Source: Promethearchaeota archaeon
Lineage (GTDB): Archaea > Asgardarchaeota > Lokiarchaeia > Sigynarchaeales > SOKP01
Assembly (NCBI GenBank): GCA_019058515.1
Contig: JAHPYY010000025.1
Span: 1 to 29,831, forward strand
Length of the DNA: 29,831 nt
Reading direction: 5' to 3'
The notes beneath the pieces were generated by a model. It ran no database searches. It saw nothing but the letters and a program-made list of their open reading frames with translations, and had not been told where the DNA came from. The translations under genes were made by a program, and so were the position numbers. Below, piece after piece: positions 20,702-29,831 of this stretch; position 1 is the first letter of the stretch, and every line of letters begins with the position of its first letter.

Positions 20702-21073
20702 AGAGATAATTTAAATAATTTAGATAACACGGGGAATAATAAAAAGCTGTTTAATCCAAATTCTAATCCGATAATTCATATTAGTAAAGAGGTATAAACC
20801 CGCCTACCACATTAATTTCCGCGTAGTAACTACTTGTTGAGTCAAAATTTGGAAATCTTGCGTAATTTAACTATTTAGGAAAAATTTTATTATATGGAGG
20901 TTTATCATAATTGATCATCTTCGCAAAGATGATGAATTAAAAAATATATTATATTTGTAATTATAACACAAATAATCATCTAACTCAACAAAAACAAGAT
21001 TACCTTTTATTAATTTCATTGTTTTTCAAATTAGATTAAATAAATCAATTGGTTATTAATTACTATTAAGGAA
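20702..21073. other. Intergenic region upstream of dnaG, with one inverted repeat
   Basis: These 372 bases hold no open frame that I can support. They contain the start region of the Get3-like gene on the minus strand and the promoter of dnaG on the plus strand; TTAAATAAAT around 21036 lies about 35 nt before the dnaG start. A perfect inverted repeat, ATCATCTT-CGCA-AAGATGAT, sits at 20915-20934. It is not followed by a T-run, so it is not a typical terminator, and it may be an operator or a structured leader. The rest is AT-rich with no recognisable RNA gene. Confidence 0.4.
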
Positions 21074-22287
21074 GTGATCAAGATTACTCATCAGAATGAT
21101 TTTACAACAAAATATATTATTGAAGCGAAATTCACAATTAAGGGAGTGGTCGAAAAAAGCGACATTGTAGGCGCCGTATTCGGCCAATGATAATAAAGCC
21201 ATTTCGGCTTATCGGTTAAACGGAAGGACTTCTATTAGATTTAGATTTGAGAGATCTTCAGAAGTCAGGAAGAATAGGGCGTATTGAAGTCGAAAACGAA
21301 TCAAAAGAAGGGATATCTGAAGGCATAATTATTATTCCCTCGTCTCTTACCAGAAAAGAGACCGCGTTATTGGCAGCTACAGTTGAGACTGTGTCGCGAG
21401 TAGGACCATGCGAAGCTAGTATAAAGTTATTAGAAATACGAGACGTTCGAGAAACTAAAAGGCAAAAGATCATTAAAAGAGCTGCCGAGTTACTAAAAGA
21501 ATGGGATCAAAAATCTCTTGAACCCTCTGAAATTGAAGAAAAAATAGATAAAAACATAAAATTAGGAGAAATTATTTCTTGGGGCTCGGAAAACCTTCCT
21601 GCGGGACCTGAAGTTGAAACAAGCGAAGATTTAATAATTGTCGAAGGAAGAGCAGATGTGTTAAATTTATTACGAATTGGCATTAAAAATACTGTTGCTG
21701 TACAGGGAACTCATGTGCCTAAGTCAATTATCGAATTGACGAAAACTAAGGGCGAAATTACTGCTTTTATTGACGGTGATCGAGGTGGAACCATAATATT
21801 GAACGAGTTGCTTCAAGTAGCGAAAATAGATTATGTTGCCAGAGCCCCCGAGGGTTTTGAGGTTGAAGAACTAACAAGAAAACAATTAATTAAAGCTCTT
21901 CAGAATAAAAAACCCGCCCATGGTCAGAAGGTGGAAATAACTGAAGTAAAGCAGAAAGAGCCGAAAATAAAAGAAGCCCCTCTGGCAAAACTACTAAAAA
22001 AAATAAAAGTGAAGGACAAGGATGTAATAATAAATACCGTTAGCAGTATCAAATCTGGATACAGTGTTGGGTTCAATAAAAATGGAGAGAAGATATTTGA
22101 AGTACCCGTAGCGGAACTATATAACGAAATTCAGAACTATAAAGATTCAAGACACATCATTATCGATGGAATATTAACCGAACGGTTGTTAAATCAGATT
22201 AAAAACATGAAAATCTCTTTTATAGCTTGCAAAAACAAAGAGGAAGATGTTCGAATTCCAAGCTCAATAAATGTTTTCTATTTTTAA
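21074..22287 (+). CDS. dnaG: Archaeal DnaG primase-like protein, split by a 32-nt intron
   Basis: After removal of 21188-21219 the gene encodes 393 residues, normal for archaeal DnaG. Exon 1 (21074-21187, GTG start) gives KYIIEAKFTIKGVVEKSDIV and then GAVFGQ. Exon 2 (from 21220) continues TEGLLLDLDLRDLQKSGRIG, the conserved N-terminal domain. The TOPRIM domain follows with DLIIVEGRADV and AFIDGDRGG, then the archaeal C-terminal domain (ISFIACKNKEEDVRIPSSIN). Without splicing the product stops at codon 39, and only a TTG at 21247 would restart it, losing the first 47 residues of a conserved domain. Archaeal DnaG makes RNA primers and is also part of the exosome, where it helps poly(A)-rich RNA processing. 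It converges with the OsmC gene. Confidence 0.88.
21188..21219 (+). other. Predicted bulge-helix-bulge (BHB) intron in dnaG
   Basis: The 32-nt segment contains in-frame TGA, TAA, TAA and is not a multiple of three. Its RNA pairs as follows: GGCC (21182-21185) with GGTT (21214-21217) makes the 4-bp central helix with two G-U pairs; GATAA (21189-21193) with TTATC (21209-21213) makes the inner helix; GCC (198-200) with GGC (206-208) closes the intron hairpin. The 3-nt bulges are AAT (21186-21188) and AAA (21218-21220). Cutting after the second base of each bulge, the known position for the archaeal splicing endonuclease, joins CAA to ACG and restores the frame. The outer exon-exon helix is weak (TTC 21179-21181 with GAA 21223-21225), a relaxed BHB. 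Confidence 0.82.
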
Positions 22288-27943: not shown

Positions 27944-29674
27944 ATGATTGATTGGTTAATGTTTTTATTTTTTCAACTGACAATAATAGATTTCGTTCAA
28001 ATCGTAACTTTAAACCTTCTAATTACAGTCATTTCCCGGATTTATTACCTGCTAATTCGCTTTTATTACTGTAGAAATGTTTTAACACAGCCATTTGTTT
28101 ACTACCATCGAAAATTTTTTTACTATTTACTTCAGGTTTTAATAGTTTTAGTTTCCATCATATTGTTACCTTTTACATTATTTACTTCTATTTTTTCTAT
28201 CTTTCTGGGTTCGCATTATCTAAAAAAAATTGGGGAGCAAAAAAGCCTTAAATACTTAATAAACCTGAGTTCTGTGATCTCCATTACAGTCACACTTTTT
28301 ACTTCTATACTAGCTATTATATTAAACGATCTGTTTTCGATCGTATCAATAAGCTTAGCGTTAATCCTGTACTTAATTCTGGGAGTAAAGATAGTTACAA
28401 AAGCGTTGGACCAAATTTCGAAAGGTATTGCAAAAACGTCCTACAAAGATTGGACACCATTTCAACTAGTAAAAGGAATTTGTTTAGTCGCGTTAGTAGC
28501 CTTCTCATCTATCGTAATAACATATTCAGGATTATATTCTGAACCTGAACCTAAAGAATTTTTTATAGAGATGAGAGATGGCGTAAAATTAGCAACAGAT
28601 GTGTATTTCGCACCGGGGTCGTTTGGTATTGCAAGACCTGTAATACTTGTTAGAACACCTTACGGAAAAAGAGGTTGGGCCTACGATCTATATTCTGATT
28701 TCTATCTCACGCAACAGTATCACTTAGTAATCCAAGATTTAAGAGGAACATTCGATTCTGAAGGGGGAACGAATTTTCAATTATTTACTAAATCTTACCA
28801 AGACGGTGTAGACTCTATAAATTGGTTACTCTCACAAAGTTTCTGTAATGGTAAAATTGCAAGTGTAGGCGTCTCTGCATTGTGTATTAATCAGTATAGT
28901 TATGCAGGAATGGGTCCACAAGGATTAGAAGCGCAATCATTATGGTTTGGAACTCCTGAATTGTTTGATCACGCTATTTTTCAAGGTTCTTATCATAAAT
29001 CCTCTGTAGAGACTTGGTTAAAAAGTACTGCCCCCGAAAATTGGGAATTTCAAAGGGATCTGATATTTCAGTATTTCCCTCGTACAATAAATTTCAATTC
29101 TACTTCTCTTTCGATGCCTATCGGACCTCAATATTCCAATGTAAATGTGTACGGACTGCATGTTGGAGGATGGTATGACCACTTTCTTCAAGGAACTTTG
29201 GATGGCTATATCGGATACGATGATTATGGTACAATTAAAGCACAGAATCACCAAAAACTTATCATGGGTCCGTGGACGCATGGAGCAGTTTTCGGTGATA
29301 TTGAAGGGGAATTGGTGTATCCTGATAATGCTAATGGTTTTAATTTAATATTGGACTGGGAGACTCAAATCTTCGACGATGCACTCTTAGGGATTCCTGG
29401 GAGATGGGATGGTGCGAGAGTTGCTTACTATCTGATGGGAGATGTAGATGGCGAGTCCAAAGAATGGAATTATTGGAGATATGCGTATGACTGGCCTTTG
29501 GAACATGTTAACGATTCTTGGTATTTCGTTGCTGATGGGAGTCTTCAAAAAAATGACCCCGGATCAGATTTTCAAAGATTTGAATACTTGTACGACCCTA
29601 GGTTTCCTGTACCTAATTTAGGGGGACAAAATCAGCCATTTGACCTAAGCGGACCAATTTTTTCTAGTGCTTGA
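27944..29674 (+). pseudogene. Second CocE-like hydrolase, truncated at an IS607 fragment
   Basis: This paralogue of the upstream gene has the same layout: N-terminal membrane helices, MRDGVKLATDVYFAPG, nucleophile S311 in VGVSALCINQYSYAG, GGWYDHFLQGTLDGY and H446 in GPWTHG. At residue ~570 it departs from its sibling (shared …VPNLGGQN, compare VPTIGGNN) and stops after SGPIFSSA. The whole C-terminal jelly-roll domain (about 160 residues) is missing. Immediately downstream the sequence is the 3' part of a serine-recombinase gene, so truncation came from a mobile-element junction. The catalytic residues are complete, so residual activity is conceivable, but loss of the C-terminal domain usually harms folding in this family. 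Confidence 0.8.
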
Positions 29675-29831
29675 TGAGATCATTCAAAATAAAGTAAAGA
29701 GAATAATTATTACCTACAAAGATAGACTAAGTAGAGTTGGATTTGGTTTATTTTCGCATTTATTTAGGCAATTTGGATGTGAAATAACCATTATTTCCGA
29801 AGTTGGGAATGAACAATTAGATTCCAAAGAA
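29661..29831 (+). mobile_element. IS607-family serine recombinase (TnpA) fragment, 5'-truncated, runs off the right edge
   Basis: The frame reads FLVLDEIIQNKVKRIIITYK and then DRLSRVGFGLFSHLF, RQFGCEITIISE, followed by a charged stretch to the window end. This is the catalytic-domain signature of IS607 TnpA (K-V-x-x-(I/V)-x-(I/V)-T-Y-K-D-R-L-x-R-x-G-F). The N-terminal MerR-type DNA-binding part and the first catalytic segment are missing: a stop lies at 29646-29648 in this frame and the sequence to its left is the hydrolase gene. A TnpB partner, normally downstream in IS607 elements, would be outside the window. Confidence 0.85.

What the first reader, a model, noticed from the sequence alone, without database searches (positions are those of the whole stretch)
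21074..21260. BHB-type pre-mRNA intron inside the DNA primase/exosome gene dnaG
Seen directly: the dnaG frame is broken by 32 nt with three consecutive in-frame stops, and exact removal of 21188-21219 restores an uninterrupted conserved N-terminus (…AVFGQ|TEGLLLDLDL…). The segment and its flanks fold into a 4-bp central helix with 3-nt bulges on opposite strands, a 5-bp inner helix and a small hairpin. The restoring junctions fall after base 2 of both bulges, the canonical cleavage site. Established: archaeal splicing endonuclease cuts BHB motifs and RtcB ligates; protein-gene BHB introns are very rare (cbf5 of Crenarchaeota is the classic case). Inference: dnaG here is expressed only after tRNA-type splicing, linking replication/RNA decay to that machinery. 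I know of no dnaG intron reported in Asgard archaea.
Basis: partly seen in the sequence, partly recalled or inferred. Interest (0 to 1): 0.95.

Follow-up and report, generated by a model that had tools for sequence, protein, structure and literature searches.

The report
Spliced intron in archaeal dnaG gene
In an uncultured Asgard archaeon the gene for the RNA-binding protein DnaG is broken by a 32-base insert that is likely cut out of its messenger RNA by the enzymes that splice tRNA, and short inserts break the same gene in 37 related genomes, so splicing of protein messages is probably commoner in archaea than the one well-known example suggested.

Summary
The dnaG frame read from GTG 21074 stops after CAA 21187 (TGA TAA TAA). 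Deleting exactly 32 nt (21188-21219) restores conserved archaeal DnaG, and the 32 nt with their flanks can form a bulge-helix-bulge (BHB).

It is neither a one-off nor an assembly error. Of 209 Asgard genomes with a dnaG match, 37 carry a 28-43-nt insert at one of four sites within about 15 codons: FGQ|TEG, the window's site (27 genomes), TEGL|LG (8), VE|RPD (1), DI|VGA (1). Insert lengths fall in all three frames. All four pairs of the central helix form in 35 of 38 introns, the window's included. SRP54 and rpoB of the same genomes show no such break. cbf5 (6 genomes, 2 sites) and rtcB (1 genome) also carry BHB-type inserts. Relatives encode two tRNA-splicing endonuclease subunits and RtcB.

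My searches of open-access papers found no dnaG or Asgard mRNA BHB intron; cbf5 of Crenarchaeota is the known coding-sequence case.

Caveats: no RNA evidence; the BHB is not the minimum-energy fold in the window; covariation rests on 2-3 independent changes; the outer helix is displaced by 2 nt; the window's own genome is not held.

The parts
21074..21187 (+). dnaG exon 1 (38 codons if GTG 21074 is the start; true start uncertain)
   Evidence: frame and homology; start
21188..21219 (+). 32-nt predicted BHB intron TGATAATAAAGCCATTTCGGCTTATCGGTTAA
   Evidence: exact removal restores the conserved protein; inserts at the same junction in 27 other genomes
21220..22287 (+). dnaG exon 2 (TEGLLLDLDL... 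to stop)
21182..21185 (+). 5' strand of the 4-bp central helix, GGCC (exon, Gly-Gln codons)
   Evidence: pairs with 21214-21217; 4 of 4 pairs in 35 of 38 introns
21186..21188 (+). 5' bulge AA|T, predicted cut between 21187 and 21188
21189..21193 (+). inner helix 5' strand GATAA
21198..21208 (+). intron hairpin GCC-ATTTC-GGC
   Evidence: read from the sequence; present in the folds
21209..21213 (+). inner helix 3' strand TTATC
21214..21217 (+). 3' strand of the central helix, GGTT
21218..21220 (+). 3' bulge AA|A, predicted cut between 21219 and 21220

Best explanation
The 32 nt at 21188-21219 break the dnaG reading frame and are predicted to be a BHB-type pre-mRNA intron, likely cut at both bulges by the tRNA-splicing endonuclease, after which RtcB would join CAA to ACG to give full-length DnaG. 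Shown here: the broken frame, its exact restoration, inserts at the same codon junction in 27 other Asgard genomes with lengths in all three frames, the kept central helix, constraint on both exons, and endonuclease and RtcB genes in relatives. Inferred: transcription through the insert, cleavage, ligation, and that unspliced message gives no working DnaG.
For: Exact restoration. Same junction in 24 genomes of the class of G008 plus G227, G157, G158, lengths 29-43 nt. Three further dnaG sites with inserts: TEGL|LG in G147-G154, VE|RPD in G011, DI|VGA in G052. Central helix 4 of 4 pairs in 35 of 38 introns; at the FGQ site the wobble base of the exon Gly codon and its intron partner vary together: C-G 13, A-T 6, G-C 5, T-G 3, G-T 1 over 28 rows; re-dealing the 7 distinct combinations paired as well in 282 of 20000 (ignores relatedness). 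The fold with the central pairs enforced equals the minimum-energy fold in 9, and lies within 0.5 kcal/mol of it in the other 3, of the 12 introns of G147-G154, G227, G011, G157 and G158. Window against G008: exon 1 (last 57 nt) 9 synonymous changes per 12.8 sites and 1 nonsynonymous per 44.2; exon 2 (first 57 nt) 11 per 13.8 and 0 per 43.2. Controls: SRP54 and rpoB rows unbroken. RtcB in 35 of 36 intron genomes; endonuclease family PF01974 in 82 of 83 class genomes, two or more matches in 68.
Against: No RNA evidence. In the window and most FGQ-site introns of its class the BHB is not the preferred fold: central-pair probability 0.00-0.06 in 22 of 25, 0.21 in G078, 0.41 in G030 and G031. On the tree the pairing class changed only 2 (well-supported) to 3 independent times, both sides together each time; sign test p 0.5. 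Two of the window's four central pairs are G.U and the outer helix is displaced. G052, G157 and G158 have only three central pairs. Constraint is weaker in some pairs, e.g. G043-G039 exon 1 (2.5 per 12.3 against 3.5 per 44.7) and G075-G078 (8 per 12.7 against 7 per 44.3), and one pair of 17 shows no change. The endonuclease and RtcB of the window's own genome could not be looked for.
Confidence: 0.92

Rival explanations
1. The insert is an assembly or sequencing error, or dnaG here is a decaying pseudogene.
For: The window comes from a source whose reads I cannot see; three stops lie in the insert.
Against: Inserts at the same junction with different sequences in 27 other genomes; constraint on both exons; in the intron genomes SRP54 is one open frame in 35 of 37 and rpoB in 31 of 33 matched.
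Confidence: 0.03
2. Ribosomes bypass the insert or shift frame (programmed bypassing) instead of the RNA being spliced.
For: The insert is short and begins with stop codons, as a bypassed gap could.
Against: Lengths of 28-43 nt fall in all three frames, so no fixed shift serves; the codon before the resume point (TAA or TTA in most) does not repeat the take-off codon CAA/CAG, which known bypassing needs (recalled); a gap bounded by a kept 4-bp exon-intron helix is not expected.
Confidence: 0.03
3. Translation starts inside exon 2 and yields a shortened DnaG without its N-terminal domain; the insert is a leader element.
For: TTG 21247 opens a 346-aa ORF and the public relative P0001 is recorded as 346 aa from the same point.
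Against: Of 28 FGQ-site genes, 14 have no ATG, GTG or TTG in the first 20 codons of exon 2 and the others have TTG at scattered positions; exon 1 is constrained as protein. The 346-aa record probably reflects automatic gene calling (inference).
Confidence: 0.02

Closest known systems
cbf5 pre-mRNA BHB intron of Desulfurococcales and Sulfolobales (Yokobori 2009, PMC2738675; abstract and part 1 of 2 of Results read)
   Same: Short intron in a coding sequence, BHB at both borders, predicted cut between residues 2 and 3 of the bulges, host enzyme hetero-oligomeric, intron lost in some lineages, inner part variable.
   Different: Different gene and phylum; for cbf5 spliced cDNA was obtained for several species, here there is none; dnaG has inserts at four sites. 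I did not compare the crenarchaeal cbf5 intron position with the two Asgard cbf5 sites.
BHB intron in the 5' UTR of HVO_1309 of Haloferax (PMC7714728, passages)
   Same: An mRNA substrate of the archaeal splicing endonuclease.
   Different: Lies in the untranslated leader, does not break a reading frame.
tRNA introns of Asgard archaea (PMC11291895, passages: 92-95% of tRNA genes of three Atabeyarchaeia/Freyarchaeia genomes have introns)
   Same: Introns of Asgard archaea expected to be removed by the same enzymes.
   Different: They lie in tRNA genes; the passages I saw describe no protein-gene intron.

Membership tests
archaeal BHB pre-mRNA intron | interrupts a reading frame; exact removal restores a conserved protein | tested here: met
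archaeal BHB pre-mRNA intron | 4-bp central helix between two 3-nt bulges, pairing exon with intron | tested here: met
   GGCC x GGTT with bulges AA|T and AA|A; 4 of 4 pairs in 35 of 38 introns
archaeal BHB pre-mRNA intron | exon borders lie after base 2 of both bulges | tested here: met
   this is one of three equivalent joins in the window; by sequence only, not by cleavage
archaeal BHB pre-mRNA intron | inner helix inside the intron | tested here: met
   GATAA x TTATC, 5 of 5 pairs in the window; 3 to 5 of the first five in all 38
archaeal BHB pre-mRNA intron | outer helix directly next to the bulges (canonical hBHBh') | tested here: not met
   the base pair next to the 3' bulge would be C.C (or T.C) at the FGQ site; TTY of Phe can pair with GAR of Glu after a 2-nt offset (read from the flanks). 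Relaxed motifs are known substrates (PMC6379350, section 5), so this bears on 'canonical', not on 'BHB-type'
archaeal BHB pre-mRNA intron | BHB is the stable fold of the RNA | tested here: inconclusive
   not the minimum-energy fold in the window; equal to it or within 0.5 kcal/mol in the 12 introns of G147-G154, G227, G011, G157, G158
archaeal BHB pre-mRNA intron | host has a tRNA-splicing endonuclease able to cut relaxed BHBs, and RtcB | tested here: met
   in relatives only: PF01974 in 82 of 83 class genomes, 68 with two or more matches, one subunit with Tyr/His/Lys aligned to 3p1z and one without the His; RtcB in 35 of 36. Window's own genome not held; PF01974 not searched in G147-G154, G157, G158, G227
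archaeal BHB pre-mRNA intron | spliced mRNA exists | not testable with these tools
   no RNA data
group I or group II intron | catalytic RNA core of hundreds of bases | tested here: not met
   32 nt; no Rfam family reaches its gathering score anywhere in the window
programmed translational bypassing | matching take-off and landing codons | tested here: not met
   take-off CAA/CAG, last insert codon TAA or TTA in the FGQ-site rows; the rule itself is recalled

The most novel reading that the evidence does not exclude
Asgard archaea carry a living population of BHB introns in protein genes, repeatedly gained and lost: in dnaG (four sites), cbf5 (two sites, one inside the Asp codon of the GTLDP motif) and rtcB (the RNA ligase that would seal the messages, its own included), so that RNA decay, rRNA modification and RNA ligation depend on, and may be tuned by, the tRNA-splicing machinery.
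Probability: 0.6. Interest if true: 0.9.

Novelty: new member of a known kind. Interest (0 to 1): 0.82.

Why it matters
A 2020 paper states that, besides its own 5'-UTR case, cbf5 of Crenarchaeota was the only BHB intron reported in an archaeal mRNA (PMC7714728, passages). Inserts of the same kind in dnaG, cbf5 and rtcB of the archaea closest to eukaryotes would mean that some annotated Asgard proteins are truncated only on paper, would supply many natural substrates for mRNA splicing by protein enzymes, and would make intron gain and loss in archaeal messages testable among close relatives (intron-free G001 and G002 group with intron-bearing G008 and G046).

Tried and rejected
Second intact dnaG: in the class of G008 only the mixed bin G073 shows one (it also has two rpoB); not testable for the window's genome. 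Group I/II intron: no Rfam hit. Pseudogene. Frameshift or bypassing: against lengths in all frames. Internal start in exon 2: not conserved. Poor sequence: against controls. Formal covariation test on the tree: too few independent changes. Free folding: does not favour the BHB in the window. At G052 the automatic search for a canonical BHB gave only a join that loses conserved residues, so I propose a relaxed motif with 3 central pairs by eye. The first cut search in cbf5 of G157/G158 required Glu and gave 2 of 4 pairs; allowing Asp gave 4 of 4, so that cut was chosen after the first result. For cbf5, rtcB, TEGL|LG and VE|RPD the best-pairing cut was taken among those that restore the protein. 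An idea that the FGQ site is a hot spot because GGCC pairs with itself, so that a small duplication would build a BHB, was not tested.

Full report
What is there. Read from GTG 21074, the dnaG frame runs 38 codons to CAA 21185-21187 and then meets TGA TAA TAA; the same protein continues in another frame from ACG 21220 to the stop ending at 22287. Deleting 32 nt (21188-21219) joins ...DIVGAVFGQ to TEGLLLDLDLRDLQ..., a stretch nearly invariant in an alignment of 23 rows (P0001 lacks that part). The joined protein scores 428.3 bits against NCBIfam NF003108 (DnaG), the downstream ORF alone 359. Three equivalent junctions exist because exon and insert both end in AA.

The motif. Exon GGCC (21182-21185) pairs with insert GGTT (21214-21217), leaving bulges AA|T and AA|A; GATAA pairs with TTATC inside, and a GCC/GGC hairpin closes it. 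Letter shuffles of the insert (4000) gave four central pairs in 0.9% and both helices in none. Against this, the free minimum-energy fold of the 82-nt context is a different one (-16.5 against -12.5 kcal/mol with the central pairs enforced), and no outer helix adjoins the 3' bulge.

Relatives, first scan. A scan of GTDB contigs gave 16 loci. I aligned 14 of them with the window (L014, a partial gene, and L015, a micrarchaeon, were left out): L012 and L013 carry inserts at the same junction, of 30 and 37 nt, the other 12 none.

Class. The class of L013's genome (G008) holds 83 genomes, 76 with a dnaG match. I read 76 loci from 75 of them (G038 begins inside the gene and was left out). Twenty-four genomes have the FGQ|TEG insert, 29-43 nt long; G011 has a 37-nt insert at VE|RPD and G052 a 30-nt insert at DI|VGA. 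That is 26 of 75.

Phylum. In the phylum of G008, 209 of 227 genomes have a dnaG match. Outside the class I judged insertion from the continuity of the N-terminal match and fetched the split ones and some partial ones (20 stretches, 19 genomes). G147-G154 (8 genomes) have 28-31-nt inserts at TEGL|LG; G227, G157 and G158 have 31-34-nt inserts at the FGQ site. Total 37 genomes with a dnaG insert. Small in-frame inserts without a stop, or inserts in partial genes, could have been missed outside the class. G147-G154 may be Hermodarchaeia, but the names on the database hits are mixed.

Conservation of structure. In the 25 FGQ introns (24 loci of the class and the window) the four central pairs form in 25 of 25; the third pair, between the wobble base of the Gly codon and the intron, is C-G 10, A-T 6, G-C 5, T-G 3, G-T 1. 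Over 38 dnaG introns 35 have four pairs; G052, G157 and G158 have three. Re-dealing the 7 distinct exon/intron combinations paired as well in 282 of 20000, but that ignores relatedness: on the protein tree the pairing class changed only 2-3 independent times, both sides together each time, which cannot reach significance. Central-pair probabilities are 0.32-0.98 in the 12 introns of G147-G154, G227, G011, G157 and G158, but 0.00-0.06 in 22 of the 25 class FGQ introns (0.21 in G078, 0.41 in G030 and G031).

Evolution. On a 93-row DnaG tree the FGQ label needs at least 11 changes, 4 of them forced by well-supported branches; the TEGL|LG rows are one clade (100/100). Intron-free G001 and G002 group with intron-bearing G008 and G046 (100/93), which suggests exact loss, or repeated gain. 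In 17 pairs of intron-bearing genes compared over 57 nt on either side, nonsynonymous change is mostly far below synonymous change (window-G008: exon 1 1/44.2 against 9/12.8, exon 2 0/43.2 against 11/13.8); weaker in exon 1 of G043-G039 and of G075-G078; none at all, of either kind, in G025-G027.

Controls and other genes, 36-37 intron genomes. SRP54 (model TIGR01425, below its curated cut-off as in the archaeal controls) is one open frame over the model in 35 of 37; G157 is partial and G075 lacks it. Lower-scoring rows of that search (paralogues such as FtsY) include some with stops (G158, G054, G078, G026, G014 and weak ones), which I did not examine. rpoB matches in 33 of 37: 31 full, G051 to position 575, G026 in two pieces, no stops in any listed row. 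RtcB is full and uninterrupted in 30 of 36; absent in G030; in pieces or gapped in G014, G026, G059, G151; split in G062. The split in G062 is a 29-nt insert with central TTGG x CCAA and bulges AT|A and AA|A whose removal restores GVGYDINCGVRLL. cbf5 is uninterrupted in 29 of 37, partial in G062, not found as such in G147, and interrupted in six: G148-G151 at NLD|KPP (40-42 nt, CTGG x CCAG or CCGG) and G157/G158 inside the Asp codon of GTLDPKVTG (29-30 nt, CACT x GGTG). In the 26 class genomes with a dnaG insert, cbf5 is uninterrupted in 25 and partial in G062. These genes were chosen by me, not sampled, so no genome-wide rate follows.

Machinery. PF01974 is found in 82 of 83 class genomes, with two or more matches in 68 (my count from the table); no interrupted row was examined there. 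One subunit of G051 aligns with EndA 3p1z over Tyr, His and Lys, the second lacks the His (that these are the catalytic residues is recalled). A review states that only (alpha-beta)2 and epsilon2 endonucleases efficiently remove introns with relaxed BHBs (PMC6379350, section 5 read). RtcB is found in 35 of 36. PF01974 was not searched in G147-G154, G157, G158 and G227.

How it likely works. The transcript would fold locally at the Phe-Gly-Gln codons, the endonuclease would cut after base 2 of each bulge, and RtcB would join the exons. The N-terminal domain split by the intron binds RNA in Sulfolobus DnaG, an exosome subunit (PMC4227792, passages), so unspliced message would give only a fragment of about 38 residues. 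Regulation through splicing is possible, not shown.

Literature. Eight searches of the held open-access library (listings) showed no dnaG intron and no Asgard mRNA BHB intron. Passages of PMC7714728, PMC11291895, PMC6125680 and PMC12397907 and parts of PMC2738675 and PMC6379350 were seen. Subscription papers and preprints were not searched, so prior report elsewhere cannot be excluded.

Noticed in passing
L143 (rtcB of G062), minus strand, around locus 1485-1512: A 29-nt BHB-type insert splits the gene of the RNA ligase RtcB; removal restores GVGYDINCGVRLL.
   Followed up: partly
L145, L146 (G157, G158) and L147-L150 (G149, G151, G150, G148): cbf5 carries BHB-type inserts at two sites, one inside the Asp codon of GTLDPKVTG, the other at NLD|KPPGP.
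   Followed up: partly
L147, L148 (cbf5 of G149 and G151): Cbf5 also holds a large intein-like insertion after AGTYIRKL, beginning with Cys and containing a TPDHEIL block (open frames around 900 aa). Intein reading is by eye.
   Followed up: no
window 21064-21090 and the same place in 52 loci: The start codon of dnaG is uncertain: GTG 21074 lies in a Shine-Dalgarno-like GGAAGTGATC, two relatives (G029, G066) have an in-frame TAG at codon 3 and G075 is out of frame there, so translation may begin downstream, perhaps at an ATT.
   Followed up: partly
window 29640-29831: The second of two CocE-like hydrolase genes (27944-29674) ends early, and the last bases read as a serine-recombinase/resolvase fragment (DRLSRVGFGLFSHLFRQFGCEI), as if a transposon sat in the gene (family by eye).
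   Followed up: no
G073 (L048, L063): One bin holds an intron-free and an intron-bearing dnaG and two rpoB, so it is probably a mixture.
   Followed up: partly
window 21170-21213: The intron core GCCATTTCGGC resembles the exon GCCGTATTCGGCC just upstream; in the window the two can pair in the free fold, and the likeness could hint that the intron arose by local duplication (seen).
   Followed up: no
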